DNA of 64,000 nucleotides from Streptomyces halstedii (GTDB taxonomy: Bacteria; Actinomycetota; Actinomycetes; Streptomycetales; Streptomycetaceae): the NCBI GenBank assembly GCA_000720535.1, contig JOAZ01000024.1, positions 1 to 64,000 on the forward strand, given 5' to 3'. How positions within the stretch are numbered: position 1 is the stretch's first letter; the number at the start of each line of letters is the position of its first letter. Below the pieces are notes generated by a model that searched no databases, had not been told where the DNA came from, and worked only from the letters and a program-made list of their open reading frames with translations. Positions 33,813 to 53,136 of this stretch are shown one piece after another. Position numbers and translations under genes: made by a program.

Positions 33813-34811
33813 TCAGGCCGCCAGCCGCCCCGGTTTCACGGCCTGCGGGCCGAACTTCGCCCGCACCTGGTCGGACACCGCCTCGATCCGCCGGGCCCGC
33901 TCGTCCACCGGGTCGAAGGAGAGCTGGTGGGCGGCCCGTTCCGCGTCGTGCAGCCCCTCCGCCCGCAACGCGAACCCCCGCACCCGCGCCCGTTGCAGCG
34001 CGAACGAGTCCTGGACCCGGTACACCAGCGCGGTGAGCGCCGCCGAGTGGGCGGTGGGTTCGGGGAGCGTACGGCTGCGGGTCAGCGTCGTGCAGCCGCT
34101 CCGGCCGGCGTACCGCACGGTGACCGCGAGCGAGCGGCAGACCTGCCCGTCGGCGCGCAGCCTGGCCCCCAGCTCCTCGGTGAGCGAGAGGAGCGCGCGG
34201 CGGTGCCGCTCGGGGTCCAGTTCGTCGCGGGGGAAGGAGCGTTCGGCGCCGATGGACCGGGCGGCGGCGTTCGGGACGACCCGGGTGCGGTCGATGCCGT
34301 TGGCCCGTTCCCACAGGTCGCGGCCGGTCCGTACCCCGGTGATCCGCTGGAGGGTGGCGAGCGGAGCGGCGGCGATCCGGCCGACGGAGTCGAGCCCGTA
34401 TCCGCACAGGGTGCGCGCGGTCGCCGGGCCGACGCCGTCCAGCGCCGCGGCGGGCTTGGCCGCGAGGAAGCCGGCCGTCTCGTCCTCGGGCACCGTGAAG
34501 GTGGTCCCGGGTGCCGCCTGGCGTGCCGCCATCCGGGCCAGCATGGGATTGACAGCCGCCCCGATCGCGCAGTCCACGCCGTGCAGGGCGAGCGCGCGGA
34601 CCCGGATCACCGAGGCGAGTCCCGCCACGTCCTGCCCGAAGTAGCGCAGTGCCCCGCCGACATCGGCGAGCGCTCCGTCGGGCGGCGCGGCCTCGACGAC
34701 CGGGGTGAACGCGCCGAGGAGCGCGAGCAGGCCCTCGTAGGCCGCGCTGTCCGGCGGGCCGCCGCCGATCCGCCGGAACCGCAGGCACAGGACGGCCGGT
34801 TGCCCGCTCAT
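33813..34811 (-). CDS. imuB: ImuB-like inactive Y-family DNA polymerase
   Basis: A 332-residue Y-family polymerase homologue. The helix-hairpin-helix region FLAAKPAAALDGVGPATART (about residues 125-145) and the little-finger part are recognisable. The catalytic DExD and SIDE acidic motifs of active Y polymerases are not seen, as expected of ImuB, which bridges the beta clamp and DnaE2 in translesion synthesis. It follows dnaE2 with an ATGA overlap, so it is translationally coupled. A C-terminal clamp-binding motif is not obvious. Confidence 0.82.
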   Translation of the reverse strand: MSGQPAVLCLRFRRIGGGPPDSAAYEGLLALLGAFTPVVEAAPPDGALADVGGALRYFGQDVAGLASVIRVRALALHGVDCAIGAAVNPMLARMAARQAAPGTTFTVPEDETAGFLAAKPAAALDGVGPATARTLCGYGLDSVGRIAAAPLATLQRITGVRTGRDLWERANGIDRTRVVPNAAARSIGAERSFPRDELDPERHRRALLSLTEELGARLRADGQVCRSLAVTVRYAGRSGCTTLTRSRTLPEPTAHSAALTALVYRVQDSFALQRARVRGFALRAEGLHDAERAAHQLSFDPVDERARRIEAVSDQVRAKFGPQAVKPGRLAA

Positions 34812-37800
34812 CCCGCGCTCCCCGGGCTCTGGTGCCACAACTTCCGCCCGGTGGGCGCCCCTTCACCGGCGGGCTGGAGGTCGGACCAGGGGTTCATCTC
34901 GTAACCGGTCGGCAGCTGGATCCGCCGGCCGCCGTCGGCCGGCGCCGCCTCCTCCTCGGTCCCGGGCACCTCCGCCAGCCGTGCCGCGACCGCGTCGAGC
35001 CCGCCCTCGCGCCGCAGTTCGGCCAGCTCCGCCAGGTTCCAGGCCGCCGCCCCCACCACGCTCATGCTGCGCGGGCCGCGCCGCTGGACCACCCCGCGCA
35101 CCAGCAGCAGCCAGGAGTGGAAGACGGTGTGGGCGCAGGCGGCGTGACTGTCGTCGAAGAAGGCCAGGTCCACCAGGCCCGTCCCGTCGTCCAGGGTGGT
35201 GAAGATGACCCGGCGCCCGGAGCGGACGGGCGGGGTCTGGGTGGCCGCCTTGGCGCCCGCGACCAGCACGGTCTCGCCGTGCGCGGCCTCCCGCAGCCGT
35301 TGGGCCGAGACCGCTCCCAGCTCCTCCAGGAAGGCGTGGTGATCACCCATCAGGTGGCGGGAGACGTCCATGCTGAGGACGCCGAGTTCGGCGCTGAGGC
35401 GTTCGGCGTCGTTGAGGTCGGGCAGTCCGACGGTGCCCGTGCGGTGCCCGTCGCCGAGCGGGAGCTGGGCGCCGTCGCCCCGGGCCCCGGCGCCGCGCTG
35501 GGCACGGTGCAGTTCGGACAGGTGCAGCAGCAGGTCCCGGCGGTTGGCGCCGAAGGCGTCCAGCGCGCCGACCTGGGCGAGGCGTTCGGCGGCCGGCCTG
35601 CCGGGCCGGGCCCGCTGCCAGAAGTCGAGCAGCGAGGAGTAGGGCTGCCCGGCCTCGATCCGGGCGACCTCGGCCTCGCTGATGCCGTGGACGTCCGCGA
35701 GGGCCAGCCGCAGCCCCCACGCGCCACGCTCAGACACCAGTTCGATTCGATGGGTGGCCGCCGACCGGTTGACGTCCAGCGGCAGCACCGGCACCCCGCG
35801 CCGCCGCGCGTCCGCGAGCAGCAGCCGCTTGGGGTACATCCCCGGGTCGTGGGTGAGCAGCCCGGCGTAGAAGGCCGCCGGGTGGTGCGCCTTGAGCCAG
35901 GCCGACTGGTACGTCGGTACGGCGAAGGCGACCGCGTGCGCCTTGCAGAAGCCGTAGCTGCCGAACGCCTCGACGATCTCCCAGGCACGGTCGACCACCT
36001 CGGGCGCATACCCCCGCTCCGCCGCCCGGAGCGCGAACCAGACCTTGATCCGGCCCTGCGACTCGGGGTCGGACAGCCCGCGCCGCACCCGGTCGGCCTC
36101 GCCCCGGCCGCAGCCGGTCATGATGTCGACCATCTCGATGATCTGCTCGTGGAAGACGACCACGCCGTAGGTGTCGCGCAGCGGTCCCTCCAGGTCGGGG
36201 TGCGGGTAGCGGACGGGCGCGCGGCCGTGCCGGGCCTCGATGAACGGCCGCACCATGTCGGCGGCGACGGGACCGGGGCGGAACAGCGAGATGTCGACCA
36301 CCAGGTCGTGGAAGGTGGCGGGCTGGAGCCTGCCGACCAGGTCGCGCTGGCCCGGTGACTCGATCTGGAAGCAGCCCAGCGTCTCGGCGCTCCTGATCAG
36401 CCGGTACGTCTCCGGGTCGTCCGGCGGCACGGCGTCCAGGTCGAGCTCCTGCCCCGAGGCCCGCTTCAGCTCGGTGACCGCGTGCGCCATCGCCGACTGC
36501 ATCCGTACGCCGAGCACGTCGAGCTTGAGCAGCCCGAGGTGTTCCACGTCGTCCTTGTCGAACTGCGCCATCGGGAAGCCCTCGCCGCTGGTGGGCACGA
36601 CGGGCGTACGCCGCAGCAGCGAGGCGTCCGAGAGCAGCACCCCGCACGGGTGCATGGCGATACCGCGCGGCAGCGCGTCCAGCGCCTCCACCAGCTCCCA
36701 GAGCCGGCCGTACCGCTCCTTCCGCCCGGCCACCTCGCGCAGTTCGGGCAGCTCCTCCATCGCGGCGCGGGCGTCCCTGGCCCGGATGTGCGGGAAGGCC
36801 TTGGCGAGCCGGTCGGTCTCGGCGGGGTCCATGGAGAGCGCGGCGCCGACGTCCCGGATGGCGTGGCGCACCCGGTAGGTCTCGGGCATGGAGACGGTGG
36901 CGACCCGCTCGGCGCCGAAGCGCCCGATGATCGCGCGGTAGACGTCGAGGCGGCGGGCCGACTCCACGTCGATGTCGATGTCGGGCAGCACGAAGCGCCG
37001 TTTGGACAGGAACCGCTCCATGAGCAGCCCGTGTTCGACGGGGTCGGCGTGCGCGATGCCCAGCAGGTGGTTGACCAGGGACCCGGCGCCGGAACCGCGC
37101 GCGGCGACCCGGACGCCCATCCCCTTCACGTCGTCCACCACCTGAGCGACCGTCAGGAAGTAGGAGGCGAAGCCGTGGTGGGCGATGATGTCCAGCTCGT
37201 GGTGCATCCGCTCCCAGTGGTCGCGCCTGCCGTCCAGACCGCGCAGCACCATGCCGGCGGCGGCGCGGGAGGCCAGCACCCGCTGCGCGGTACGCCGCCC
37301 GGCGCCGACGAGGTGCGGTTCGGGGAAGTGGACGCTGCCCAGCCCCAGGTCGTCCGCGGGGTCGACGCGGCAGGCGTCGGCGGTGTGCCGGGTCTCGGCC
37401 AGCAGCCGCTCCCCCGCGCCCGGACCGAGGCCCGCGGCCGAGGTGACCCGCTCGGCGGTCTCCCGCATCGCGTGGGCGTCCTTGAGCCAGCGCTCCCCGC
37501 TGTCGAGGGGGGAGCGGCGCGGGTCGACGGGAACGAGCCTGCGGGCGGAGTCGAGTACGTCGGCGACCGGGCCCTGCCCCGGGTCGGCGTACCGGACGGC
37601 GTTGGTCAGCACGGCCCGCACCCCCTGGTCGGCGGCGAAGCCGACGGTACGGGCGGCGAGCCGCAGCGATCCGGGGCCGGTGCCCGCGCGGCCGTGGTGG
37701 ACCGCTTCGAGGCGCAGGGCGTCACCGTAGAGCTCCCGCCAGGGGGCGAGCAGCGCGGCGGCCCGGTCGGGGCGTCCGGCGGCGAGGGCCGCGCCGACGT

Positions 37801-38269
37801 CGGAGGCGGGGCCGAGCAGCACGGTGAGCCCTTCGGCGGGCAGCGCGGCCCGGCCGACCAGGAGCTGTCCGGTGCCGGCGCCGCCCGTGTCCGGGGCGTG
37901 CGCCGCGGTGACCAGCCGGCACAGTTCGGCCCAGGCGGGTGCGCCGTCCCGGGCGAGGAAGGTGACCCGGGGCGCGGATTCGTCGACGAAGGCACCGCCG
38001 CGGACCGGGGCCCGCAGCCGGTGCGTCAGCCCGGCCCCGCCCTCTCCCGTACGCGGCGCCACCGCGAGTTCCGCCCCGAAGAGCGGCCGGATCCCGGCGC
38101 TCTCGCAGGCCCGTGCGAAGCGGACCGCGCCCGTGAGGCCGTCGCGGTCGGTCAGCGCGAGGGCGTCCATCCCTCGCTCGGCGGCGCGCTCGGCCAGCCG
38201 CTCCGGATGGGAGGCGCCGTACCGCAGGGAGAACCCGGAGGCGGTATGCAGATGCGTGAAGCCTGACAC
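34808..38269 (-). CDS. dnaE2: Error-prone DNA polymerase III alpha subunit DnaE2
   Basis: A 1153-residue C-family polymerase. The PHP domain starts FTHLHTASGFSLRYGASHPE. The polymerase palm carries VAARGSGAGSLVNHLLGIAH and FVLPDIDIDVESARR with the catalytic aspartates, then FGAERVATVSM. The C-terminal OB fold is near residues 1000-1100. DnaE2 makes mutagenic bypass synthesis after damage. GTG 38269 was chosen because AGGAGG precedes it by 6 bp. A LexA-type box lies 63 bp upstream, so the operon belongs to the SOS response. Gene order is dnaE2 then imuB; no imuA' is present. Confidence 0.93.
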   Translation of the reverse strand: MSGFTHLHTASGFSLRYGASHPERLAERAAERGMDALALTDRDGLTGAVRFARACESAGIRPLFGAELAVAPRTGEGGAGLTHRLRAPVRGGAFVDESAPRVTFLARDGAPAWAELCRLVTAAHAPDTGGAGTGQLLVGRAALPAEGLTVLLGPASDVGAALAAGRPDRAAALLAPWRELYGDALRLEAVHHGRAGTGPGSLRLAARTVGFAADQGVRAVLTNAVRYADPGQGPVADVLDSARRLVPVDPRRSPLDSGERWLKDAHAMRETAERVTSAAGLGPGAGERLLAETRHTADACRVDPADDLGLGSVHFPEPHLVGAGRRTAQRVLASRAAAGMVLRGLDGRRDHWERMHHELDIIAHHGFASYFLTVAQVVDDVKGMGVRVAARGSGAGSLVNHLLGIAHADPVEHGLLMERFLSKRRFVLPDIDIDVESARRLDVYRAIIGRFGAERVATVSMPETYRVRHAIRDVGAALSMDPAETDRLAKAFPHIRARDARAAMEELPELREVAGRKERYGRLWELVEALDALPRGIAMHPCGVLLSDASLLRRTPVVPTSGEGFPMAQFDKDDVEHLGLLKLDVLGVRMQSAMAHAVTELKRASGQELDLDAVPPDDPETYRLIRSAETLGCFQIESPGQRDLVGRLQPATFHDLVVDISLFRPGPVAADMVRPFIEARHGRAPVRYPHPDLEGPLRDTYGVVVFHEQIIEMVDIMTGCGRGEADRVRRGLSDPESQGRIKVWFALRAAERGYAPEVVDRAWEIVEAFGSYGFCKAHAVAFAVPTYQSAWLKAHHPAAFYAGLLTHDPGMYPKRLLLADARRRGVPVLPLDVNRSAATHRIELVSERGAWGLRLALADVHGISEAEVARIEAGQPYSSLLDFWQRARPGRPAAERLAQVGALDAFGANRRDLLLHLSELHRAQRGAGARGDGAQLPLGDGHRTGTVGLPDLNDAERLSAELGVLSMDVSRHLMGDHHAFLEELGAVSAQRLREAAHGETVLVAGAKAATQTPPVRSGRRVIFTTLDDGTGLVDLAFFDDSHAACAHTVFHSWLLLVRGVVQRRGPRSMSVVGAAAWNLAELAELRREGGLDAVAARLAEVPGTEEEAAPADGGRRIQLPTGYEMNPWSDLQPAGEGAPTGRKLWHQSPGSAG

Positions 38270-38331
38270 CCGCACCTCCTGGACCGTTCCGTATAGCGCC
38301 ACCCCCCTCGCTCTCCACCCTAAACCAAGTT

Positions 38332-38347
38332 TCGAACATTCGTACGA
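38332..38347 (-). promoter_or_regulatory. LexA (SOS) box before dnaE2-imuB
   Basis: TCGAACATTCGTACGA matches the actinobacterial SOS box TCGAAC-N4-GTTCGA with one mismatch. It lies 63 bp before the dnaE2 start in a short AT-rich stretch, between dnaE2 and the divergent membrane-protein gene. Confidence 0.8.
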
Positions 38348-38451
38348 TAGCCGAAGCGGGGCGCACCCCCGTCCCCCCTCCGGCCGCCGCCCCTCCGCCA
38401 TTCGGCTCTGCCCCGACTGCACGGACCGTGGGGCGCCCGGACCGTGGGGGC

Positions 38452-40805: not shown

Positions 40806-41024
40806 CGCCGGTGCCCACTCAACGGGCGGTCGCTGTACTGCCCTTGTTCCTCCGGCGCGCGTACGGCGACCAGGCCGTGCACGGCCCGGCGCCCGGCGGA
40901 CCGATACCTGACAAACGTCATCCCTTCCTGTGCGCAAGGTCGTTCCTGGGAAGGATGGATGACCGGTGTGACGCGCAGAGGATGGGGAGCTCTGCCACGC
41001 ACACCTGAGGAGACGGGATCCCCC

Positions 41025-42353
41025 ATGCGCGACACCCGACCGAACCCTCGCTCCGACCGCCGCAGAGCGCGTCTGGCCGCCGTCGCGTCGGCGGCCCTGT
41101 TGTCGCTCCTGGCCGGCGCGTCTCCGGCCGGGGCCGCCGCCGCCCCGCCGTCGGCCACCGCCACCGCGTCCGCCGCCTCGACCGCCACCCCCCTCGACCG
41201 GAAGGCACTGCGCGCCTCCCTCGAAGCGTTCCACCAGGCGGGCATGTACGGGGCCTACTCCTCGGTCAGGGACGGCTCCGAGCGGTGGCGCGGAGCGGTC
41301 GGCGTCGCCGACATCGACACCGGCCGGCCGATGCGCCCGGACTACGAGCACCGCGTCGGCAGCATCACCAAGACCTTCACCTCGGTGGCCGTCCTCCAGC
41401 AGGTGGCCGAGGGCCGGATCGGCCTCGACGCCCCGATCGGCGACTACCTTCCGGACCTGGTACCGGGCGAGCGGGGCCGGGAGGTGACGGTGCGGATGCT
41501 GCTCAACCACACGAGCGGCATCGCGGACTACATACTGCCCGCCTTCCCCGGGCTGGTGACGGACCCGGGACAGGCCCTGGACGAAGGCCGCTTCCGCGAG
41601 CTGGTCCCCGAAGAGCTGGTCCGCCTCGGCCTGGCCGCCGAGCCGCCGGCACCGCGTGGCACACACGCGTACGCGAACACCAACTACCTCATCGCCGGTC
41701 TGCTGCTGGAGAAGGTCACGGGCCAGGACCCGGAGGCGTACATCACCGAGAACGTCATCCGCAGGGCCGGACTGCGGCACACGTACTTCCCGCGCTCCGC
41801 CCGCATCCCGGGTCCGCACGCCAGGATGTACGAGTCGTTCTACGGAACCATCGACCCGGCGCGCGACTACAGCGTCTACGACATGTCGTGGGCCGGGACG
41901 GCCGGGGCGATGGTCTCCACGACGGACGACCTCAACGACTTCTACCGCCGGCTCCTCGGCGGGAAGCTGCTCGGCGCGGCGGAGCTGCGGGAGATGAAGA
42001 CGACGGTCCCCGCCTACGAGCCCGCTCCGGGGCAGGAGGTGGCGATGCGGTACGGCCTCGGCCTGTACACGCTCAAGATGCCCGGCGGCGACTGGTACTG
42101 GGGCCACGACGGTGGCGTGTTCGGGGCCGGGACCTGGGCGCTGTCCACGGAGGACGGGCGCCGCCAGGCCGCGATCGGCTACAACCTGATGAAGTACGAG
42201 CGGTTCGGCGAAGACGGGACACCGCTGCCGGACCCGATCGGCTCCGCGCTGTTCGGTTACATGGACGGAGCGCTGAGCGGCGCCCCCGCCGAGCGGGCCC
42301 CCGGCGCGTCGCCGGTGCCTCAGCGTCTGGTCGCACCCGAGCAGCTGCGGTGA
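41025..42353 (+). CDS. Secreted beta-lactamase-like serine hydrolase (second copy type)
   Basis: A 442-residue protein of the same family as the gene before it. An Ala-rich signal peptide follows a basic N-terminus and ends near AGAAAAP. The SITK motif (about residue 116), YAN (YxN, about 222) and HDGGVFG near residue 365 form the active site. It probably acts as a D-alanyl-D-alanine peptidase or esterase at the cell surface. ATG 41025 has GAGGAGACGGG ahead. A 219-bp gap separates it from the first hydrolase, so it has its own promoter. A strong terminator follows. Confidence 0.88.
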   Translation: MRDTRPNPRSDRRRARLAAVASAALLSLLAGASPAGAAAAPPSATATASAASTATPLDRKALRASLEAFHQAGMYGAYSSVRDGSERWRGAVGVADIDTGRPMRPDYEHRVGSITKTFTSVAVLQQVAEGRIGLDAPIGDYLPDLVPGERGREVTVRMLLNHTSGIADYILPAFPGLVTDPGQALDEGRFRELVPEELVRLGLAAEPPAPRGTHAYANTNYLIAGLLLEKVTGQDPEAYITENVIRRAGLRHTYFPRSARIPGPHARMYESFYGTIDPARDYSVYDMSWAGTAGAMVSTTDDLNDFYRRLLGGKLLGAAELREMKTTVPAYEPAPGQEVAMRYGLGLYTLKMPGGDWYWGHDGGVFGAGTWALSTEDGRRQAAIGYNLMKYERFGEDGTPLPDPIGSALFGYMDGALSGAPAERAPGASPVPQRLVAPEQLR

Positions 42354-44013: not shown

Positions 44014-44898
44014 GTGCGCAGTCGTGTGCGCGTGGCGGACGGGCGGCATCTGATGGTGGAGCGTCAGGGGGATCCGCACGGCAGACCCGTCTTCCTCCTG
44101 CACGGCACGCCGGGCAGCCGGCTCGGCCCCGCCCCGCGCGGCATGGTGCTCTACCAGCGCAAGACCCAGCTCATCGCCTACGACCGTCCCGGCTACGGCG
44201 GTTCCGACCGGCTGGCCGGCCGGCGGGTGGTGGATGTCGTCGAGGACATCCGGGCGATCGCCGACTCGCTCGGGCTCGACCGGTTCGCCGTGGTGGGCCG
44301 CTCGGGCGGTGCTCCGCACGCGCTGGCCTGCGCCGCGATGATGCCGGACCGGGTCACCCGCACGGCCGCGCTGGTGGGCCTGGCCCCCTGGGACGCGGTG
44401 GGTCTGGACTGGTTCGAGGGCATGGCCGCGTCCAACGTGCTCGCGTACTCCACCGCCGCCGCCGATCCGGACGGGCTCGCGGAGTCCTTCATCAGCCGTT
44501 CGGCGGAGATCCGGCAGGACCCGGTCCGGCTCCTGGACGACCTGCGCCGGGAGCTGACCGACTCCGACCGGGTGGTGGTCAACGACGCGGGCATCCGCAC
44601 GCTGCTGCTGGCCAACTACCGTGAGGGGCTGCGCACATCGGCGTACGGCTGGATCGACGACGCCATCGCGTTCTCCCGGCCGTGGGGGTTCGACCCGGCG
44701 GACATCACCGGGCCGGTGATGCTGTGGCACGGCGAGAAGGACGTGTTCACACCGGTCGGCCACTCGCGCTGGCTGGCCGGACAGATTCCGGGCGCCACCG
44801 CCGTACTGGAGCCGGCGGCCGCACACTTCGACGCGCTCTCGGTGCTGCCCGAGGTGCTCAACTGGCTGCTGGACGACCGCCCGGCCCCGGTGGGCTGA
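44014..44898 (+). CDS. Alpha/beta hydrolase
   Basis: A 294-residue cytosolic hydrolase. The oxyanion-hole HGTPGSRLGP, the nucleophile elbow VVGRSGGAPHALA (Ser about residue 97), the acid in LWHGEKDVFTPVGHSRWL and the final histidine in AAAHFDAL form the triad. It resembles proline iminopeptidase/haloalkane-dehalogenase-like members. The substrate is unknown. GTG 44014 was chosen because GGAGGAGG precedes it by about 6 bp. It ends at a bidirectional terminator shared with fxsT and is probably unrelated to the fxs genes. Confidence 0.88.
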   Translation: MRSRVRVADGRHLMVERQGDPHGRPVFLLHGTPGSRLGPAPRGMVLYQRKTQLIAYDRPGYGGSDRLAGRRVVDVVEDIRAIADSLGLDRFAVVGRSGGAPHALACAAMMPDRVTRTAALVGLAPWDAVGLDWFEGMAASNVLAYSTAAADPDGLAESFISRSAEIRQDPVRLLDDLRRELTDSDRVVVNDAGIRTLLLANYREGLRTSAYGWIDDAIAFSRPWGFDPADITGPVMLWHGEKDVFTPVGHSRWLAGQIPGATAVLEPAAAHFDALSVLPEVLNWLLDDRPAPVG

Positions 44899-44980: not shown

Positions 44981-45019
44981 CCACGGTGGGGGCCCCTTTC
45001 ACCGGGGCCCCCACCGTGG
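44981..45019. terminator. Bidirectional terminator between the hydrolase gene and fxsT
   Basis: CCACGGTGGGGGCCCC (44981-44996) pairs perfectly with GGGGCCCCCACCGTGG (45004-45019), a 16-bp stem with a 7-nt loop, 8 bp past the fxsT stop. Confidence 0.85.
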
Positions 45020-45027
45020 TCACGGCG

Positions 45028-48000
45028 TCACACCGACATCGGTTCCAGCTCCCGCCGGAACCGCCGCTCGGTCCGCGCTATCCGGGTCAGCGGGTGCTCG
45101 TCCCCCAGTTGCCGGGCCAGCTCGTCACCCGTCTCCGCCCGCAGCCGCCGCGCCTCGTCCGGCCGGCCCAGCGCGTCCAGCGTCACGGCGAGGTTGGACG
45201 TCATGGCCAGGGTCTCCGGGTGGTGTGCTCCCAGTACCTCCCGGAGCTGCCCGGCCACCGTGCGCTCCGTCTCCAGCACGATCTCCAGCCGCCCGGTGTC
45301 GGCCGTCGCGTTCGCCAGGTTCATCACGCAGAACAGGGTGTTGGGGTGCTCCCTGCCGAACGTCTCCCGCATCAGGGCGACCACCCGCTTCAGCAGCCGC
45401 TCCGCCTCCTCGGGCGCGTCGGACCCCGAGAGGTAGACACCGAGGTTGTTCTGCGCCGCCAGGGTGTACGGATGCCTCTCCCCCGGCACCTTCATGTACT
45501 GGTCGACCACCTCCTGCGCGGTCGTCCTGGCCTCGGCCGCCTCACCCGCCGCGAACAGGTCGGCCGCCATGTTGAGGTCGCAGGCCAGGGACTCCGGGTT
45601 GGCCGCGGTGTACTTGGCCCGGTACCTGGCCCGGGTCGCCACCGTCAGCCTGCGGGCGTCCTCCAGCTGCCCGGCCCGCCGCAACGACACCGCGAGGCTC
45701 TTGGCGGCGCTCAGGGTGGTGGGATAGGTCCGCCCGAGGGTCGCCTTGAGACTCTCGTACGTACGGCTGAGCAGACCGACCGAGTCCTCGTACCGTCCGA
45801 CCTCCCGCAGGTCGCGGGCGAGGTTCAGGGCGGAGGACAGGCTGTGCGGATGCTCCTGGCCCAGCACCTCCGACCTCAGGTCGTAGCAGTCCTGGTCGAT
45901 CTCGCGGGCCCGCGCGTACTGCCCGACGCTCCGCAGGTTCAGCGCCAGGTTGTTGGCCGCCGCCAGGGTCCGGGCGTGCCGCTCGTGGAAGATCTGGTTG
46001 AAGCCGTCGTGCGCCTCGGTGGCCAGCTCGATCGCCCGCCCGTAGTCCCCGAGCAGGCCCAGGTCGATGGCCAGGCTGCTGGTGGTCATGTAGGTGTGCG
46101 GGTGCTCCGGCCCCAGCACCTCCCGCTGGGTCCGCAGCGTGAACTCGTCGAGCTCCTTGGCCTCCACGTACCGCCCGCGGGTGCGGAGGATGTTGGAGAG
46201 GTGGAAGCAGAGGTAGAGGTACTGGATGTCCCGCTCCCCCAGCATCTCCAGCCAGGTCTCGCGCAGTTCGTCGCCCAGCGTGGCGGCGGTCCTGATGTCA
46301 CCGCGCTTCCAGAGGTAGCGCACCCGGTCTATCAGCAGCCTGCGGGTCTCGTGGTCCCGGCAGTTGCGGGCGTCGGACGGCCCGAGGTGCGGCCAGATGG
46401 CCGCGAAGCGCGGCCAGGTGTCCGGGTTGTCGATCGGTTCGGTGTCGTCCGGCCGGGCGCCCGCCAGGATGCGGTGGACGACGTGCCGGGCCTCGGCCTG
46501 CTCCTCCTCGCTGAGCTGGGCCCTGATCACCGCCTGCACCAGGCGGTGCACCTGGATGGAGTTGGACACCTGGTCGACCTTGGCGAGGGCGAAGCGGCCG
46601 ATCTCCCGGATGACCCGGCCCAGCACCAGCTTCTCCTGGAGGGAGGCGTCGTACGGCTTGAGTGCCTCGATCATCTCCTTGCTGTAGAGGAGGTTCGCGG
46701 AGATCGGCTCGGGGGCGAAGAAGGCGCAGAGCTGGAGCAGCCGCACGGCCGCGGGCGAGCGCTCCTCAAGGCGTTCGATCGAGATGTTCCAGGTGGCCGC
46801 GACCGGCTGCGGGTAGCCCGCCGGCTGGTTGAGGGCGAGCACCTCGGGCGCCTGCCGGGCCAGTTGCTCCAGATAGGTGTCGATGGGGGTGGCGGTCTCC
46901 GCGATCCAGGCCGCCGCCTGCTCGACGGCCAGCGGCAGGTCACCGACGGCCGTGGCCACCTGGGCCGCGTCCCGCTCGCTGAGCCCCGGGGCCCGGCGCT
47001 GGAGGTGCTCGACGGACTCCTCCCGGAGGAAGACGTCCACCGGCAGCGCGTCGCCGTGCTGGGACCAGGCCTGGTTCCTGGACGTGACCAGGATGTGCCC
47101 GGAGCCGCCCTGCGGGAAGTAGCGGCGGAGCCGTTCCGGGTCGTCCGCGTTGTCGAAGACCAGCAGCCAGCGGTCCGACGGCACACCGCGGCGCAGCAGG
47201 TCCACGGCCTCCTTCGAGGCGGCGGCCATGTCGTCGCCGCCCTGGGCCCCGAGCCGTACGGCGAGTTCGGCGAGCCCCGCGATCACGTCGTCGGTCTGCT
47301 CGGACGAGATCCACCACACCAGGTCGTAGTCGGCCATGAAGCGGTGGACGTACTCCAGGGCCACCTGGGTCTTGCCGACGCCGCCGAGCCCGTAGAGGGT
47401 CTGCGGCTGCGGCAGCACGACGGCCATCCCGCCGCCGAGCTGGTCGCGCATCCGCTCCAGGACGAGGGAGCGGCCGGTGAAACCGGGGTTGCGGGGCGGT
47501 GCGTTCCAGATCCTCGGCACCGTGCCGGGGAAGCGCGGGCCGGGTGCCACCCCGTCGCCGAGCTGGACCGGCCGGTCCACGGCGCGCATCAGGGCGGTGG
47601 TGGCGTGGACCTCGTCCAGCCGGAACAGGTCCACCGGGTTGCGGTCGATGTACGGGGCCGAGAGGCGCACGTCGCTGATCCTGAGCGGCAGCAGCCGGCG
47701 CCGCCCGCCGCCGGGGTCCTCGGCCACCGCCCTGTCCCACAGGCCCACGGCCCGCTGGGACTTGAGGTAGGCGCTGGACAGCAGGACGACCGTACGGGCC
47801 GCGGTCTCCGGGGTGGGGCGCGCGGGGGGCTCGGGTCCGGGGTCGGCGGAGGCGTCCCGGGGGACGACCCGGAATCCGGCCCGGGTGAGGACCGACTCGA
47901 TCCAGTCCGCCCACATGCGGTTCTCCGCCACGTAGCTGAGGAAGAGGTCGGCGGGCAGCGCCGGCCTGCGCCGGGTGAAGGCGTCGCGGACGCGCAGCCG

Positions 48001-48963
48001 TACCTCCTCGCTCATCTGCGCCATCGCCGTGACCTCCTGGTCGGTGATCACGGCGGTGAGGCGTTCGAAGGCGGAGAGCAGCGAGTTGCTGAGCCCGGCC
48101 TCGTCGCCGAAGGTGGCGAGGGTCTCCTCGTACGCGTAGTAGGGACGGTAGGGGATCTCCACCGCGCCCCAGTAGGCGGTGAGTTCGTCGCCGGAGAGGT
48201 CGCGGGGCAGCCGGTCGAACTTCAGCCGGGCCAGGGCGCGGCCGGCGTCCGCCTTCTCCTTCTCGCCCTCGTCGATGCGCATCGGGACGGGGAAGATGGA
48301 GATGGGCCTGCCCGTGTAGCGCTCGGCGATCTGCCGGGCGACGGAGGCCGCGCCGTCGATGGACTGGTCGCTCAGGGTGAAGCAGTCCACCAGCACGTCG
48401 GGGAGGTGGACGGTGCAGATGTCGGCGATGTCGCTGAGACCGGTGCGGCTGTCGATGAGGACGTAGTCGTAGTGGGTCTTCATGTCGTCGCGCAGGGCGT
48501 CGAAGAAGTGGCCGCCGCCGAGCCGGTCGTAGAAGTTGTCCCAGTCGAAGGTGGAGACGGTCGCGGAGTACTCGCGGTTCTGCCGTCCGGCGGAGACGAA
48601 GTCGAGGGTGCCGCCGCGCGGGAACTCCCAGCCGAGCGCCTCGGGGTCGAGCGAGACCGCGTGCGGCTGGACGCGCGCGTAGTCGCGGTGCCAGTCGCCG
48701 GCGCGCTGGGCGGGGTTGGTCGCGGCCCAGGCGTACTCGGTGATCAGGTCGATGACCCCGGTGGTGGCGCCGAGTGTCGAGGGGTCGAGGAAGGGGTGGA
48801 AGAACCGGTGGAGCCCGGGGGCTTCCAGGTCCCAGTCGACGGCCAGCACCCGCTTGCCGTTGGCGGCCAGGATCCAGGCGGTGTTGGCGAGGGCCATGGT
48901 GCGCCCCGTGCCGCCCTTGTACGAGTAGAAGGTGACGATGCGCCCGTCACGCCCGGCTGTCAT
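45028..48963 (-). CDS. fxsT: FxsT: ParA-like, TIR, NB-ARC and TPR protein of the FxSxx-COOH system
   Basis: A 1311-residue protein of the FxSxx-COOH system tetratricopeptide family. Residues about 8-300 are a ParA/MinD-like P-loop domain (FYSYKGGTGRTMALANTAWI; YDYVLIDSRTGLSDIADIC). Residues about 335-450 are a TIR-like domain (DLFLSYVAENRMWADWIESV) whose usual catalytic glutamate position reads AVGLW. Residues about 480-770 are an NB-ARC STAND ATPase (LYGLGGVGKTQVALEYVHRF; WLLVFDNADD). About 890-1311 are TPR repeats with the recurring EHPxT pattern. STAND proteins oligomerise on sensing a trigger. It overlaps fxsC by ATGA, so the two are coupled. Confidence 0.92.
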   Translation of the reverse strand: MTAGRDGRIVTFYSYKGGTGRTMALANTAWILAANGKRVLAVDWDLEAPGLHRFFHPFLDPSTLGATTGVIDLITEYAWAATNPAQRAGDWHRDYARVQPHAVSLDPEALGWEFPRGGTLDFVSAGRQNREYSATVSTFDWDNFYDRLGGGHFFDALRDDMKTHYDYVLIDSRTGLSDIADICTVHLPDVLVDCFTLSDQSIDGAASVARQIAERYTGRPISIFPVPMRIDEGEKEKADAGRALARLKFDRLPRDLSGDELTAYWGAVEIPYRPYYAYEETLATFGDEAGLSNSLLSAFERLTAVITDQEVTAMAQMSEEVRLRVRDAFTRRRPALPADLFLSYVAENRMWADWIESVLTRAGFRVVPRDASADPGPEPPARPTPETAARTVVLLSSAYLKSQRAVGLWDRAVAEDPGGGRRRLLPLRISDVRLSAPYIDRNPVDLFRLDEVHATTALMRAVDRPVQLGDGVAPGPRFPGTVPRIWNAPPRNPGFTGRSLVLERMRDQLGGGMAVVLPQPQTLYGLGGVGKTQVALEYVHRFMADYDLVWWISSEQTDDVIAGLAELAVRLGAQGGDDMAAASKEAVDLLRRGVPSDRWLLVFDNADDPERLRRYFPQGGSGHILVTSRNQAWSQHGDALPVDVFLREESVEHLQRRAPGLSERDAAQVATAVGDLPLAVEQAAAWIAETATPIDTYLEQLARQAPEVLALNQPAGYPQPVAATWNISIERLEERSPAAVRLLQLCAFFAPEPISANLLYSKEMIEALKPYDASLQEKLVLGRVIREIGRFALAKVDQVSNSIQVHRLVQAVIRAQLSEEEQAEARHVVHRILAGARPDDTEPIDNPDTWPRFAAIWPHLGPSDARNCRDHETRRLLIDRVRYLWKRGDIRTAATLGDELRETWLEMLGERDIQYLYLCFHLSNILRTRGRYVEAKELDEFTLRTQREVLGPEHPHTYMTTSSLAIDLGLLGDYGRAIELATEAHDGFNQIFHERHARTLAAANNLALNLRSVGQYARAREIDQDCYDLRSEVLGQEHPHSLSSALNLARDLREVGRYEDSVGLLSRTYESLKATLGRTYPTTLSAAKSLAVSLRRAGQLEDARRLTVATRARYRAKYTAANPESLACDLNMAADLFAAGEAAEARTTAQEVVDQYMKVPGERHPYTLAAQNNLGVYLSGSDAPEEAERLLKRVVALMRETFGREHPNTLFCVMNLANATADTGRLEIVLETERTVAGQLREVLGAHHPETLAMTSNLAVTLDALGRPDEARRLRAETGDELARQLGDEHPLTRIARTERRFRRELEPMSV

Positions 48964-50279
48964 ACGTCCTCCGCATCCGTCGCAGGGTCGTGCCTGTCGG
49001 ATATGAACTGTGTGGGGCCCATCGGTCCCGTCGGGCCCGTCAGCCGTGTCCGTTCGCCGTGCCGTCCGCCCGTCGAGGGGGGATACGCCGTCGCGTGCCG
49101 CAGATACTGCTGGGCGGCCACCTCGACCACCCGCGGGAGGACCTGGCCGAAGGCCTCCATGGTCGGTACCCCCTTGGCGGCGGCGCGGCAGAAGGCCCGG
49201 CCCTGCCGCATCTTGACCGGCATCGTCCGTTCGAGCATCTCGGTCAGTTCGGTCTCGGCCGCCCGGCTCTGGTGGTCGTCGCGGCACCACGGCACGACCA
49301 TGGTCACCCAGGGCCGGTTCTCCTGGTCGAAGGCGGCGAGCCTGCGTCTCAGTTCCTCGTCCCGCAGGGCCCAGCGGTCCACCAGGAGTATCTCCGGTGT
49401 GCTGGGAGCCTGTTTGCCCTCCCGCTGCCCGGTGTCCTCGTCGAACGAGGTGATGACGGCCTGGTAGTTGAGTGAGCGGACCAGGTCCCCGGTGACGTAG
49501 GCCAGTGGTCTGGCGGCGACCGGGTGGTAGGGGTTCCAGTCCTGCGGATGGTCGCCGTAGTAGTCGGTGGCGCGCCCTTCGGGCAGGTCGTGGCGGGTGG
49601 GCGCGGCGACGGTGATCCGCATCCGGCGGGCAGCGCCCGCCCCGCCGCCCGGTGTCCCGAAGGCGCTGGGGGCGAGCCGGTAGTCCACCGGCCTGCCGGT
49701 GTCGATCTGCACGGTGTCCGCGACGCTGACGATGCGTTTGGCCAGTTCGTAGACCGCCTGCTCGTATTCCTGGGCGAAGAGCCTGAGTTTGATCAGGCCG
49801 TAGAGACCGTCACTGACGTACCGTTTCCCGAAGTCGCGGTGATTGAATTGCAGCCGCTCGGCCGGTCCCGGCAGTTGGCGGGGCGGGACCGGGACCCAGA
49901 GGGCCGGGACGATGGCCTCGGCGGGCTGATTCGAACGGGCCCGGTGGTGGATGGCCCGTTGCTCGAACGCGTACCATTCCTTTCCGCACATCTCACTGGC
50001 GAAATAGCGCGGCGAGAACAGGGGTACGAACACCCGGCAGGTGGCGAGAACTCCGCCCAGCCGTTCGGACCATCCCTCGCCCGAGCGAATCTCCCTGTCC
50101 ATGAATCCCGCGGATGCGCTCGCGGGCAGATCGGTCATCGCCATCACATGACCGCAAAGATCTTGGAAAAGCCGCTCGACCCACATATCGGGGTCCGTTC
50201 CACCGCCGTACCCCGGTGTATGCGCGTAACTCAGAAAGAAGTACGGCCGATGGTCCCGCTGCTGCCTTGACGCGTGCAC
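48960..50279 (-). CDS. fxsC: FxsC: TIR-like protein of the FxSxx-COOH system
   Basis: A 439-residue protein. The N-terminal TIR domain begins PYFFLSYAHTPGYGG and contains SPRYFASEMCGKEWYAFEQR, in which the CGKE glutamate sits where TIR NADases keep their catalytic acid. The remaining two thirds are a conserved alpha/beta domain of unknown fold with a WVTMVVPWCRDDHQSRAAE motif. It lies between fxsB and fxsT. I chose GTG 50279 (VHASRQQRDHRPYFF) after GGACGGGGG; in-frame GTG codons up to 50312 are possible but lack a ribosome site. Confidence 0.9.
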   Translation of the reverse strand: MHASRQQRDHRPYFFLSYAHTPGYGGGTDPDMWVERLFQDLCGHVMAMTDLPASASAGFMDREIRSGEGWSERLGGVLATCRVFVPLFSPRYFASEMCGKEWYAFEQRAIHHRARSNQPAEAIVPALWVPVPPRQLPGPAERLQFNHRDFGKRYVSDGLYGLIKLRLFAQEYEQAVYELAKRIVSVADTVQIDTGRPVDYRLAPSAFGTPGGGAGAARRMRITVAAPTRHDLPEGRATDYYGDHPQDWNPYHPVAARPLAYVTGDLVRSLNYQAVITSFDEDTGQREGKQAPSTPEILLVDRWALRDEELRRRLAAFDQENRPWVTMVVPWCRDDHQSRAAETELTEMLERTMPVKMRQGRAFCRAAAKGVPTMEAFGQVLPRVVEVAAQQYLRHATAYPPSTGGRHGERTRLTGPTGPMGPTQFISDRHDPATDAEDV

Positions 50280-50349
50280 ACGACCCCCGTCCTGTGTGAG
50301 CACTCGCACCACGGAGTGAAAAGAAAGATGCGAGCGAATTCATCATCAC

Positions 50350-50366
50350 GGAGCAGACTGTGCTCC
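50350..50366 (-). other. Small stem-loop in the fxsB-fxsC gap
   Basis: GGAGCA and TGCTCC can pair around GACTG. It lies in the 184-bp gap between the fxsB stop and the fxsC start, which also holds two CGGTCAT(T/C)C repeats. The gap is long for an operon, so fxsC-fxsT may have their own promoter here; the stem is too short to call a terminator. Confidence 0.35.
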
Positions 50367-50463
50367 ACCCCCCTGCCGTTCGGTCATTCACCGTTGCTTT
50401 TCGGTCATCCGTTCCCGGATGCGGCCCGCGGCGTCGCCGGCCGGTCCCCGTCCCGGTGTCGTG

Positions 50464-52710
50464 CTACCCGGACGCCCCCCGCGCACCGCCGGCGGTCTCC
50501 TTCCGGAGCCGTGCCAGCACGCGCGCCCCGTCGACGGTCAGTTCGGCCGCCGACTCGATCGAGGCGAGCGCCCGGGGGACGCCGTCCAGGAGCCTCGGTT
50601 CCAGGAGCCCCGCACCCACCCGCTCGAACGTCTCCGCGAACAGGCGGGAGAACGGAACAGCCTCCGGCCCGCCCCAGGGCAGGCGATGCTCCCACGCCCC
50701 GTCCGACGCGTACAGGTCCGTGACACCGGCGAGTGCCCGGAACGTGGCGCGTCTGTGTCCGCGCAGCAGCGCGAGCGCCAGTTCCCCCGCCCCGTCCTCG
50801 TCGCCGAGGCCCAGCGCCCCGTGGCCGTGCCGTCCGGCCCGGGTCGGGCCCGAGACGAGCGGGGTGACGGTGGTCAGGGCCCGCGCCGCCTCGGCCGCCT
50901 GCCCGGGAACGGCCGCGCGCAGCAGTGCCCACGCTGCGGACAGCCGCGCGTCCCAGGTCCTGACCCCGGCCGGGGTCAGGCGCGCGGCCACGGGCCCGTC
51001 GAAGCAGTCGCGCCGGGGATCCAGGTCGTCGAGTACGAGGACGGGCGCGCCGTCGCCGCCCACCCGGCGCAGCGGGAGCCAGCCGGGGCGGTCCGCCGGG
51101 CCCGTCGCGATCAGCCGCTCCGCACCCGCGCCCCGGTCCTCCGGCCGGACCAGGAGGCCCTCGTCCGTGTCCCGGACCAGGACAGGGCCCCGCCACCCGG
51201 TCCGGACCTCGCCGAGCGTGGGGAGGAAGAACCCGCCGCCGTCCTCGGTGGGCACCGGGACCGTCAGCCCGAGACGGCCGCGCACGGAGGCCGCGGCCAC
51301 CGAGGCGGCCAGGTGGCGGGCGGCCCGGTCCGTCACACCGCGGTCGCCCGAGCCGGCCGCCCGCGAGGCGTCCAGGAGCCAGGTGCGGGCGTAGGGACCG
51401 GCCAGGACCTCGTCCAGGGCCTCCGCCCCCCGCTCGGTCCGCTCGGCCTCGTTCGCCAGCTCCCAGGCCGCGTCCCATCCCGTGTGGCCGTGCCCGCCGA
51501 GCTCGTCCTGGAGCAGGGCGAGCAGATGCCGGTTCAGCTCCAGCTCGGCCGCGGTGAGCGCGTCGGGACCGGCGACGGCCGGTGACCCGAGGGAGGCCGC
51601 CGCGCGCTCCTCGACGCCGCGTACCAGCGCCGCCAGGTCGTCGCAGTAGACGGACGGGTTGTCGAAGCCGTCGCCCGTGCGGTAGCGGTGTGTGTAGAGC
51701 CCGCCCCCGCACGAGCGCACGACGGGGCAGGTACGGCAGGTCTCGCTGACACCGGCGAGGCCGAGCTGCCGGGCTCGGACGCCGGGGTGGGCGGCCACCT
51801 CGTCGAAGGTGTTGCGGAAGACGTCGAAGCCGGTGGCCGCCGCGCCGTCGTAGGCGCTCTTGAGCGAGTCCACCTGTTCGAGCTGTCCGTCGGTCTCGAT
51901 GACGACCAGGTCCGTGGGGGCCAGTCCGAGGGACTCGGTGAGGGAGGGGCCGCCGCTCAGGGTGGAGAGGACCGACGAGAAGAGCCGCACGGGCACCGGC
52001 CGCCCCCGCTCCGTCCAGCGGTCGAAGACCGCGAGGAGCCAGTCGGCGTAGGCGGTGGCCGAGCCGTCGGGCCGCGGGGGCGGTTCGTCCCAGGTGGCGT
52101 GCGGCAGGAGGAAGTCCACCGCGGGCGGGTCGAGTGCGACGAGGGCGTCGAAGACGGCGGCGGGGTCGTTGCGGACGTCGATGGTGCACAGCAGCCCGAG
52201 GTTCAGGTGCCGGTAGCGGTCCTGGCGCAGCAGGTCGACGGCCCTGAGGACGAGGGGATGACTGGTGCGCCCGTCGGCGAAGAGGCGGTGCCGGTCGTTG
52301 GCCGCGCGGTCGCCGTCGAGGGAGATGCCGACCCTGACGCCGAACTCGTCGAAGAGGTCGAGATAGCGGGGGCTGAGCTGGACGCCGTTGGTGTGGATCC
52401 TGAGGTCCAGCTCAGCGATACCGTTCAGTGCCGACGAGAGTTCCTCGCAGACACGGCGCAGGCGGGCGGGGCCGGCCAGGAGCGGCTCGCCTCCGTGCAG
52501 GATCACTGACACCGATTCGAGCGTGTGCTCCGAGGCGTGTTCGGCCAATCGCCGAGCCGCCCATGAAATCGCTTCGTCAGAGATGGACTTGGGTCGGGTG
52601 CGCCAGCTCTGGTCCGCGTGTTCATAGATGTAGCAGTGGTCGCACGCGAGATCGCACCTGCTGTGCACTTTCAGCACAATCTCGCGAAAGGGGACCAGGG
52701 GTCCTGTCAT
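50464..52710 (-). CDS. fxsB: FxsB: radical SAM/SPASM peptide maturase of the FxSxx-COOH system
   Basis: A 748-residue maturase. Residues about 10-240 form a radical SAM core with CDLACDHC (C19, C23, C26) binding the SAM 4Fe-4S cluster and ILHGGEPLL following. A SPASM-like cysteine cluster lies at about 315-355 (ETCRTCPVVRSCGGGLYTHR, then YCDDL). This family forms C-C cyclophane links between an aromatic ring and a nearby residue in FxSxx peptides. The C-terminal 370 residues resemble the HExxH-type peptide hydroxylase domain, but the metal motif has degenerated to LRGHRRAT (about 650). The precursor gene lies 30 bp upstream. Confidence 0.93.
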   Translation of the reverse strand: MTGPLVPFREIVLKVHSRCDLACDHCYIYEHADQSWRTRPKSISDEAISWAARRLAEHASEHTLESVSVILHGGEPLLAGPARLRRVCEELSSALNGIAELDLRIHTNGVQLSPRYLDLFDEFGVRVGISLDGDRAANDRHRLFADGRTSHPLVLRAVDLLRQDRYRHLNLGLLCTIDVRNDPAAVFDALVALDPPAVDFLLPHATWDEPPPRPDGSATAYADWLLAVFDRWTERGRPVPVRLFSSVLSTLSGGPSLTESLGLAPTDLVVIETDGQLEQVDSLKSAYDGAAATGFDVFRNTFDEVAAHPGVRARQLGLAGVSETCRTCPVVRSCGGGLYTHRYRTGDGFDNPSVYCDDLAALVRGVEERAAASLGSPAVAGPDALTAAELELNRHLLALLQDELGGHGHTGWDAAWELANEAERTERGAEALDEVLAGPYARTWLLDASRAAGSGDRGVTDRAARHLAASVAAASVRGRLGLTVPVPTEDGGGFFLPTLGEVRTGWRGPVLVRDTDEGLLVRPEDRGAGAERLIATGPADRPGWLPLRRVGGDGAPVLVLDDLDPRRDCFDGPVAARLTPAGVRTWDARLSAAWALLRAAVPGQAAEAARALTTVTPLVSGPTRAGRHGHGALGLGDEDGAGELALALLRGHRRATFRALAGVTDLYASDGAWEHRLPWGGPEAVPFSRLFAETFERVGAGLLEPRLLDGVPRALASIESAAELTVDGARVLARLRKETAGGARGASG

Positions 52711-52740
52711 TCCCCCAGTCTAGCCATCTCGGCGCCGAAC

Positions 52741-52908
52741 TCAGAGTGCCGAACTGAAGGTCGAACTCTGGACAGGCCGACGCGCGGAGGTACCGATGAC
52801 GCGACCGGTCTTCCTGGTGGTCTCGGCACCCTGGGTGTCGATCTTGGCGAGTGGCACGCGGCTCTTCTTCGCGACGGCGAAGGAGGGGGAGGTTTCGTAG
52901 GTCTTCAC
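52741..52908 (-). CDS. fxsA: FxsA: FxSxx-COOH RiPP precursor peptide
   Basis: A 55-residue precursor starting VKTYETSPSFAVAKKSR and ending RRPVQSSTFSSAL. The last five residues, F-S-S-A-L, fit the F-x-S-x-x-COOH rule that names the family; the Phe and second Ser are the expected cyclophane partners. The leader is basic and flexible. There is no signal peptide, so the product probably acts inside the cell or needs a dedicated exporter, and no transporter or protease gene adjoins. GTG 52908 is preceded by AAGGA. A 10-bp inverted repeat sits in its 5' region. Confidence 0.92.
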   Translation of the reverse strand: MKTYETSPSFAVAKKSRVPLAKIDTQGAETTRKTGRVIGTSARRPVQSSTFSSAL

Positions 52909-52977: not shown

Positions 52978-53136
52978 CGGCCTGACTTTACTCCCCCGGC
53001 AGCCCCTCGCACATGCCACGGTGGTATGAATTCACGGGTTCGAGCCGCATTGCGGGGAAAGGAATCCCCGCGTGGTTGGCCCGGCCGGGTGACGGCGAAT
53101 AGGCGGGCCGGGCGGGAACCGCGGCCGGTTCGCCTC

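What the first reader, a model, noticed from the sequence alone, without database searches (positions are those of the whole stretch)
45028..52908. Complete FxSxx-COOH RiPP system pairing a modified peptide with TIR and STAND proteins
A 55-residue precursor ending FSSAL, a radical SAM/SPASM maturase, a TIR protein and a ParA-TIR-NB-ARC-TPR protein follow each other on one strand, with an ATGA overlap between the last two. These names (FxsA, FxsB, FxsC, FxsT) are known as family labels, and related maturases make cyclophanes. The biological role of the whole cassette is, to my knowledge, unestablished. No exporter or leader peptidase is present, so the peptide may act inside the cell. A reasonable model is that the modified peptide gates or is sensed by the STAND protein, which controls the TIR partner, as in plant NLR or bacterial Avs-type immunity.
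Basis: partly seen in the sequence, partly recalled or inferred. Interest (0 to 1): 0.92.

Follow-up and report, generated by a model that had tools for sequence, protein, structure and literature searches.

The report
Cyclophane peptide operon with NLR-like proteins
This Streptomyces-type chromosome carries a known but untested gene set in which an enzyme cross-links a small peptide beside immune-receptor-like proteins, and comparison with relatives points to a further enzyme that travels with it.

Summary
In detail: fxsA, fxsB, fxsC and fxsT (45028-52908, minus strand) each pass an NCBIfam cut-off. The cassette is not new. Kaur et al. 2020 (PMC7159879, section 24) describe such 'standalone peptide-processing systems' and predict a peptide toxin or signal.

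What comparison adds:
(1) An alpha/beta hydrolase (about 44014-44898, +) lies beside the cassette in 16 of 16 cassettes from three families. Its Ser-Asp-His triad is intact in 86 of 86 linked rows.
(2) FxsC's TIR keeps a Glu at the NADase position in 14 of 14 and 37 of 37 rows. FxsT's own TIR does not keep it (weak alignment).
(3) FxsB carries a beta-hydroxylase-type extension whose HExxH is lost here; 8 of 16 cassettes keep it.
(4) All 74 assessable Streptomyces loci have an FxsA with a near-constant core.
(5) FxsC is fused elsewhere to vWA-type and TPR regions.

Best model: an intracellular NLR-like switch in which the cyclophane peptide gates FxsT, and FxsT assembles FxsC. The chemistry is likely; the gating is inferred.

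The parts
52741..52908 (-). fxsA, 55-aa precursor; core F51-S52-S53-A54-L55-COOH
   Evidence: TIGR04268 29 bits, cut-off 28; alignment of 75 rows
50464..52710 (-). fxsB, radical SAM/SPASM maturase, 748 aa
   Evidence: TIGR04269 602 bits, NF040587 385 bits; C19xxxC23xxC26 invariant in 15 aligned rows
50494..51585 (-). FxsB C-terminal extension (residues 376-739), beta-hydroxylase type with the HExxH lost
   Evidence: NF040587 'inactivated beta-hydroxylase extension form'; alignment
48960..50312 (-). fxsC, TIR protein with a second flavodoxin-like domain; start codon uncertain
   Evidence: NF040588, TIGR04276, TIR_2, models
49977..49979 (-). codon of FxsC Glu112, the position that aligns with the TIR NADase Glu
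   Evidence: invariant in 14 of 14 and 37 of 37 rows; aligned with the Glu of 7vu8 and 3h16 (weak E-values)
45028..48963 (-). fxsT: KGGVGR-type ParA-like ATPase (8-212), TIR without a kept Glu (341-450), NB-ARC (522-688), TPR region
44014..44898 (+). alpha/beta hydrolase convergent to fxsT; longest frame begins 43972; proposed further component
   Evidence: Abhydrolase_1; beside 16 of 16 class-wide cassettes and 73 of 74 named loci holding fxsB and fxsT
44981..45019 (.). perfect 16-nt inverted repeat between the two convergent genes, likely a two-way terminator
   Evidence: the function is inference
52985..52990 (-). TAAAGT, -10-like hexamer inside the AGTAAAGT block upstream of fxsA
   Evidence: conserved block in an alignment of 17 upstream stretches; the coordinate was read by hand; the function is inference

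Best explanation
The locus encodes an intracellular, NLR-like switch built round a self-made cyclophane peptide. FxsB cross-links Phe51 to the beta-carbon of Ser53 at the very C-terminus of FxsA (strongly implied by family and published chemistry; not shown for this protein). The fused hydroxylase-like domain is dead here and may only hold the substrate (inferred). The peptide is not exported. Bound through its rigid F-x-S-x-L carboxyl end, it sets the state of FxsT, a STAND ATPase with a TPR sensor (inferred). A change in peptide state, for example when its maturation or turnover is disturbed, lets FxsT oligomerise. FxsT's own TIR, which lacks the conserved Glu, then recruits and aligns FxsC, whose TIR keeps the Glu and supplies the catalytic activity, probably on NAD (inferred). 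The alpha/beta hydrolase beside fxsT is a further component. It probably removes a ligand or product of the pathway or acts with the STAND arm (inferred; its substrate is unknown).
For: Four families over cut-off in one unit. 16 of 16 long-FxsB cassettes in a 296-genome class sample have fxsB, fxsC and fxsT in that order on one strand with a small FxsA frame upstream, 15 ending in FxSxx and one (L097) with an altered tail. FxsA was found in all 74 assessable named loci, with L20, R36, R44 and L55 also constant. FxsC Glu112 is invariant, while none of the FxsT TIR columns 403-413 keeps a Glu. FxsC is fused to SAV_2336-type N-termini in 4 proteins, two of them with FxSxx-type TPR over cut-off, one preceded by an AAA gene. 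FxsC model: TIR structures lead the Foldseek list. Hydrolase: 16 of the 20 best matches in 296 genomes lie at the 16 cassettes; these and 4 unlinked copies form one clade, 98/93; it stays adjacent where dnaE is absent within 17-19 kb, 9 of 9 tested; triad intact in 86 of 86 linked rows, Ser lost in 2 of 4 unlinked. No recurring transporter.
Against: No step has been tested in vivo here. FxsC's match to solved TIRs is weak (E 0.32 and 0.44; no Foldseek hit at E <= 0.001; full-length model pLDDT 57.5). The FxsC-FxsT TIR alignment is weak (hhalign probability 0.6%), and one row (L098) has Glu in the aligned column. Many genomes have FxsT-type proteins without FxsB (83 against 58 of 296 over cut-off), so FxsT need not sense FxsA. 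The hydrolase is not in the operon, also occurs without the cassette (4 of the top 20), and in one genome faces a different NB-ARC-TPR gene with no FxsA, FxsB or FxsC in reach (L192). F51 and S53 were part of the search pattern, so their constancy there is partly built in.
Confidence: 0.45

Rival explanations
1. The peptide is a toxin or an intercellular signal that amplifies a conflict response, as proposed in print. FxsT and FxsC are parallel effectors rather than receptor and output.
For: PMC7159879 section 24 proposes 'peptide toxin or signal'. Kin of FxsT and FxsC are effectors of vWA-MoxR systems: L099 has VMAP, AAA and SAV_2336-NB-ARC-TPR genes in a row, and FxsC fusions exist.
Against: No recurring exporter. 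The core is nearly constant: five tail types in 74 loci, all FxS followed by A/S and L. An intracellular toxin is not excluded.
Confidence: 0.27
2. The cassette is a stable regulatory or developmental device of actinomycetes (AfsR-like STAND control), not immunity.
For: Conserved site near dnaE in many Streptomyces (33 of 80 fetched stretches). AfsR is among the nearest solved structures for the NB-ARC part. No phage record holds FxsC, and 5 plasmid records do. Present in 53 of 150 Streptomyces, thus dispensable.
Against: TIR enzymes and the vWA-MoxR kinship point to conflict systems. Patchy presence and multiple copies in some genomes fit conflict genes too. FxsT has no DNA-binding domain in Pfam.
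Confidence: 0.2
3. The hydrolase is only a positional neighbour inherited with the site.
For: In Streptomyces it also sits near dnaE without the cassette (L193-L195). It is convergent, not in the operon. The wider family is common: 132 of 296 genomes have a match at E <= 1e-20.
Against: Adjacent in 9 of 9 cassettes tested that have no dnaE within 17-19 kb. Also adjacent when on the other side of the cassette (L086; 8 of 76 named loci). Triad kept in 86 of 86 linked rows but Ser lost in 2 of 4 unlinked ones.
Confidence: 0.25

Closest known systems
FxSxx-COOH systems (NCBIfam TIGR04268/TIGR04269/NF040588/TIGR04276/NF040586) and the 'standalone peptide-processing systems' of Kaur et al. 2020, PMC7159879
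   Same: All four families in one strand and order; ParA-like domain fused to an AP-ATPase with TPRs, as section 24 describes.
   Different: Section 24 speaks of a zincin-like metallopeptidase; here its counterpart is fused to FxsB and has lost HExxH. The hydrolase, the acetyltransferase-like gene of some relatives and the TIR split are not in that section.
Triceptide (three-residue cyclophane) maturases such as MscB (passages of PMC11002830)
   Same: Radical SAM/SPASM maturase; MscB joins C4 of Phe to C-beta of Ser, the F-x-S pattern of FxsA.
   Different: Known clusters were studied for chemistry; here STAND and TIR genes are part of the unit. The cross-link is untested for this protein.
vWA-MoxR-VMAP ternary conflict systems
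   Same: FxsT-type NB-ARC-TPR and FxsC occur as effector parts of SAV_2336-type proteins next to VMAP or AAA genes; one such system is in this very genome (L099).
   Different: The window cassette has no VMAP, vWA or MoxR gene among the flanking genes tested.
Fused radical SAM/alphaKG-HExxH proteins (Morishita et al. 2024, seen only as cited in passages of PMC12636437)
   Same: Same two-domain layout of FxsB.
   Different: HExxH lost in the window and in all 74 named loci with fxsB and fxsT; kept in 8 of 16 class-wide cassettes.
Plant TIR-NLRs and bacterial TIR-STAND immunity
   Same: TIR, NB-ARC and a repeat sensor; TIR structures of plant NLRs head the Foldseek list for FxsC.
   Different: TPR rather than LRR sensor, the TIR with the kept Glu is on a separate protein, and a self-made modified peptide lies in the operon.

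Membership tests
FxSxx-COOH system | FxsA with C-terminal F-x-S-x-x | tested here: met
   TIGR04268 29 bits, cut-off 28; ends FSSAL
FxSxx-COOH system | FxsB radical SAM/SPASM maturase adjacent | tested here: met
   TIGR04269 602 bits, cut-off 370; radical SAM and SPASM Cys kept
FxSxx-COOH system | FxsC and FxSxx TPR protein | tested here: met
   NF040588, TIGR04276 and NF040586 over cut-off
FxSxx-COOH system | Phe-Ser cyclophane made on FxsA | not testable with these tools
   needs MS/MS or NMR
alphaKG-HExxH beta-hydroxylase | HExxH metal site in the FxsB extension | tested here: not met
   no HExxH in the window; family named 'inactivated'
TIR NADase | catalytic Glu at the TIR position, FxsC | tested here: met
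   Glu112 in 14 of 14 and 37 of 37 rows; alignment to solved TIRs weak
TIR NADase | NAD cleavage | not testable with these tools
   needs an enzyme assay
TIR NADase | catalytic Glu, TIR of FxsT | tested here: inconclusive
   no Glu in 15 of 16 rows at the aligned column, but the alignment itself is weak
STAND/AP-ATPase (NLR-like) | NB-ARC with P-loop plus repeat sensor | tested here: met
   NB-ARC 33.9 bits over 23.5, TPR_12 151.5 bits; P-loop GLGGVGKTQ
Avs or Thoeris defence | match to the models of these systems | tested here: not met
   PADLOC at E <= 0.1 gives only pVip (FxsB) and PDC-M28B (FxsT)
vWA-MoxR-VMAP ternary system | VMAP, vWA and MoxR genes with the effector | tested here: not met
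   none among the flanking genes tested; such a system is elsewhere in the genome (L099)
alpha/beta hydrolase | Ser-Asp-His triad | tested here: met
   S111, D257, H285 in 86 of 86 linked rows

The most novel reading that the evidence does not exclude
A bacterial NLR pathway whose built-in ligand is a ribosomal cyclophane peptide: the cell makes a cross-linked 'password' at the C-terminus of FxsA, a STAND receptor reads its presence, maturation state or loss, and assembles a separate TIR enzyme (FxsC) through a TIR that has lost its own catalytic Glu, while a dedicated alpha/beta hydrolase resets or erases the signal. It would be a RiPP acting as an intracellular immune signal rather than a secreted compound.
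Probability: 0.25. Interest if true: 0.92.

Novelty: new member of a known kind. Interest (0 to 1): 0.58.

Why it matters
Most RiPPs are studied as secreted compounds. If this one works inside the cell as the input of an NLR-like switch, it joins peptide natural-product chemistry with innate-immune signalling. It also gives a concrete set of tests: one conserved Phe-Ser core, one TIR Glu, one hydrolase triad. The cassette is common enough to test (FxsC in 53 of 150 Streptomyces), and S. griseus and S. anulatus, easily grown strains, carry relatives (L127, L130). The hydrolase link is a prediction that any lab with a Streptomyces knock-out can check.

Tried and rejected
1. Phage or plasmid origin: no phage record and 5 plasmid records match FxsC. 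One plasmid (134,670 bases) has the length of the contig that holds the SAV_2336-TPR-FxsC fusion L218, so some plasmid copies are fusions, not this cassette.

2. SARM1-like 'W+4' Glu in FxsC (my first guess, in note 1): rejected, since E117 is not conserved in the alignment; E112 is.

3. Hydrolase explained by dnaE synteny: rejected for 9 of 9 cassettes tested. Not tested for the remaining cassettes, of which several Streptomyces ones do have dnaE.

4. A link between the acetyltransferase-like gene and the HExxH state: none seen. It is in 5 of 8 cassettes with the motif lost and 3 of 8 with it kept.

5. FxsA 'missing' in 17 of 74 loci: an artefact of my filter. A plain pattern found it in 74 of 74 assessable loci of the 80 (the other 6 lack fxsB or its start in the fetched stretch). 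That pattern itself demanded F-x-S-x-x at the stop.

6. My note 4 says 4 hydrolase hits of 50% identity or more lie off the cassette. The table also has two at 50% (G075, G144), which fall in the outgroup of the tree, and one short 54% match. I use the 20 best by score instead.

Foldseek gave no hit at E <= 0.001 for either model. Whether the second domain of FxsC is another TIR stays open.

8. Six hydrolase rows were dropped by a length filter before the 86 of 86 count. L151 is cut by the contig end; the other five each hold one stop within the aligned part, place not checked, and show the triad motifs.

9. Eight loci with long FxsC frames were fetched as possible fusions. Four proved so; the other four (L220, L223, L224, L225) were not resolved.

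10. One search used a guessed family accession that proved unrelated and was wasted.
Full report
OBSERVATION. Reading the minus strand gives fxsA (55 aa, GTG start, Shine-Dalgarno-like AAGGACGG before it), fxsB (748 aa), fxsC (450 aa) and fxsT (1311 aa) in a row; fxsT overlaps fxsC as ATGA. NCBIfam names all four over cut-off, FxsA by one bit only. FxsT is AAA_KGGVGR (8-212), TIR_2 (341-450), NB-ARC (522-688) and TPR. FxsB has a second half, residues 376-739, that matches NF040587, 'FxsBH, inactivated beta-hydroxylase extension form'.

ALREADY IN PRINT. PMC7159879 (section 24 read whole, other parts as passages) describes FxSxx peptides, a radical SAM-SPASM enzyme and a zincin-like protein coupled to AP-ATPases. 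[quoted passage not shown] Full-text searches for FxSxx-COOH, Fxs names, FxSxx with hydrolase and FxsC with TIR found no other relevant paper among those listed. Subscription papers are not in this library. Cross-linking of Phe C4 to Ser C-beta by MscB is reported in passages of PMC11002830. I recall that MscB's InterPro entry, IPR026335, is the FxsB type, but did not check it. Beta-hydroxylation by fused radical SAM-HExxH proteins is reported in passages of PMC12636437.

CO-OCCURRENCE. In 296 genomes of the class, families over cut-off: FxsC in 26, FxsB in 58, FxsT in 83, FxsA in 35. Of 35 FxsC matches, 31 have FxsB within 20 kb; of 78 FxsB matches, 30 have FxsC. FxsB with a long frame (730 aa or more) together with FxsC and FxsT was picked out in 16 genomes: ten of the window's genus and six of two other families. 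Their stretches show B-C-T in order on one strand, with a small FxsA frame upstream. Fifteen end in FxSxx; L097 ends FQSVQSSLL. FxsC was found in 53 of 150 Streptomyces and in 10 of the 28 in the class sample: common but dispensable.

FXSA. In 80 named Streptomyces loci found with FxsC, FxsA was found in all 74 where the start of fxsB lies in the stretch. Tails: TFNSAL 37, TFSSAL 17, IFNSAL 9, TFNSSL 7, SFNSAL 4. The search pattern required F-x-S-x-x at the stop, so F and S are partly built in. L55, R44, R36 and L20 were not required and are constant in 75 of 75 rows. An 8-base block, AGTAAAGT, lies upstream in an alignment of 17 stretches.

TWO TIRS. FxsC Glu112 is invariant in 14 class-wide rows and 37 Streptomyces rows. 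HMMER puts it opposite the Glu of the WCLMEL motif of a flax TIR (7vu8) and the corresponding Glu of 3h16, at weak E-values of 0.32 and 0.44. The AlphaFold model of FxsC is poor (pLDDT 57.5), yet TIR structures head the Foldseek list, none at E <= 0.001. In FxsT, no column between residues 403 and 413 keeps Glu. At the aligned column 15 of 16 rows lack it, but the alignment is weak. The second domain of FxsC folds well on its own (pLDDT 80) as a flavodoxin-like layer; its best hits are TIRs at E 0.018-0.05, so its nature stays open.

FUSIONS. FxsC, both domains, forms the C-terminus of four longer proteins with a SAV_2336-type N-terminus (L218, L219, L221, L222). In L218 and L219 an FxSxx-type TPR region over cut-off lies between. 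I read the N-terminus as vWA from its DRSSSM motif and context; Pfam did not name it. An AAA gene precedes L222. The window's own genome has a VMAP gene, an AAA gene and a SAV_2336-NB-ARC-TPR gene in a row at L099. FxsC and FxsT-type parts are thus interchangeable outputs of vWA-MoxR-like conflict systems.

FxsB EXTENSION AND AN OPTIONAL GENE. HExxH is kept in 8 of 16 class-wide cassettes and in none of the 74 named loci with fxsB and fxsT, two of them cut short. Between fxsB and fxsC, 8 of 16 cassettes and 20 of 74 named loci have an extra gene like AAC(3). Two members were checked by Pfam (Antibiotic_NAT); they score 131 and 190 bits against the NCBIfam cut-off of 270 for true AAC(3). The window lacks it.

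THE HYDROLASE. A gene at about 44014-44898 (+), Abhydrolase_1, faces fxsT across a perfect 16-nt inverted repeat. It lies beside all 16 class-wide cassettes, 51-100% identical, and beside 73 of 74 named loci that hold fxsB and fxsT; the missing one, L164, ends soon after fxsT. In 15 of 16 and in 68 of 76 it is convergent behind fxsT; otherwise it is on the other side of the cassette. Of the 20 best matches in 296 genomes, 16 are these. Linked copies and the other four form one clade with 98/93 support, apart from 11 outgroup rows. In Streptomyces it is also near dnaE with or without the cassette, but 9 of 9 cassettes tested have no dnaE within 17-19 kb, while G039, the positive control, does. 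The triad is intact in 86 of 86 linked rows; two of four unlinked copies have lost the Ser. One unlinked copy (L192) faces an NB-ARC-TPR gene, hinting that the hydrolase belongs with the STAND arm.

HOW IT MAY WORK. Shown here: gene order, domain content, conservation and linkage. From established family knowledge: cyclophane formation. Inferred: the peptide acts inside the cell; FxsT reads it through the TPR region; FxsT's TIR recruits FxsC; FxsC supplies the TIR activity; the hydrolase resets or limits the pathway. Against a diversifying secreted toxin are the near-constant core and the lack of a recurring transporter. Against mobile defence is the stable site. Neither excludes intracellular abortive defence. 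I put the switch at 0.45, a toxin or signal at 0.27 and non-immune regulation at 0.2; the hydrolase-as-bystander rival (0.25) concerns only that gene.

VERDICT. The finding is real and known as a family. What is new here is comparative: the hydrolase partner, the uneven TIR pair, the decayed hydroxylase and the effector fusions.

Noticed in passing
between fxsB and fxsC in L085, L086, L088, L090, L092, L095, L096, L098 and 20 of 74 named loci; also L107:13672-14442: An AAC(3)/Antibiotic_NAT-like gene, below the NCBIfam cut-off for true AAC(3), sits inside the cassette in about half of the class-wide set and near another FxsB type (L107); absent from the window. It may acylate the peptide.
   Followed up: partly
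L218:9123-13823, L219:5944-10488, L221:8614-11451, L222:8011-10905: FxsC fused to SAV_2336-type N-termini, two with TPRs.
   Followed up: partly
L099 (own genome, contig 23:156000-175990): A VMAP gene (EAD2, VMAP-M0, VMAP-C), an AAA gene and a SAV_2336-NB-ARC-TPR gene in a row: a vWA-MoxR-type conflict system in the same genome.
   Followed up: partly
window 34808-38422 (-): DNA polymerase III alpha-type gene (1204 aa); neighbour of the hydrolase in many Streptomyces with or without the cassette.
   Followed up: partly
L097 and L096: Tandem FxsC-type TIR genes; L097 also has a longer FxsA tail, FQSVQSSLL.
   Followed up: no
L192:9397-12656: Hydrolase of the same clade facing an NB-ARC-TPR gene, without FxsA, FxsB or FxsC matches in the stretch.
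   Followed up: partly
window 40959-42353 (+): Beta-lactamase-family (serine hydrolase) gene, Pfam PF00144, near the hydrolase.
   Followed up: no
FxsA residues 53-55: The S-x-hydrophobic-COOH end resembles a class I PDZ ligand (recalled motif, not searched); it could hint at a carboxyl-end reader or protease.
   Followed up: no
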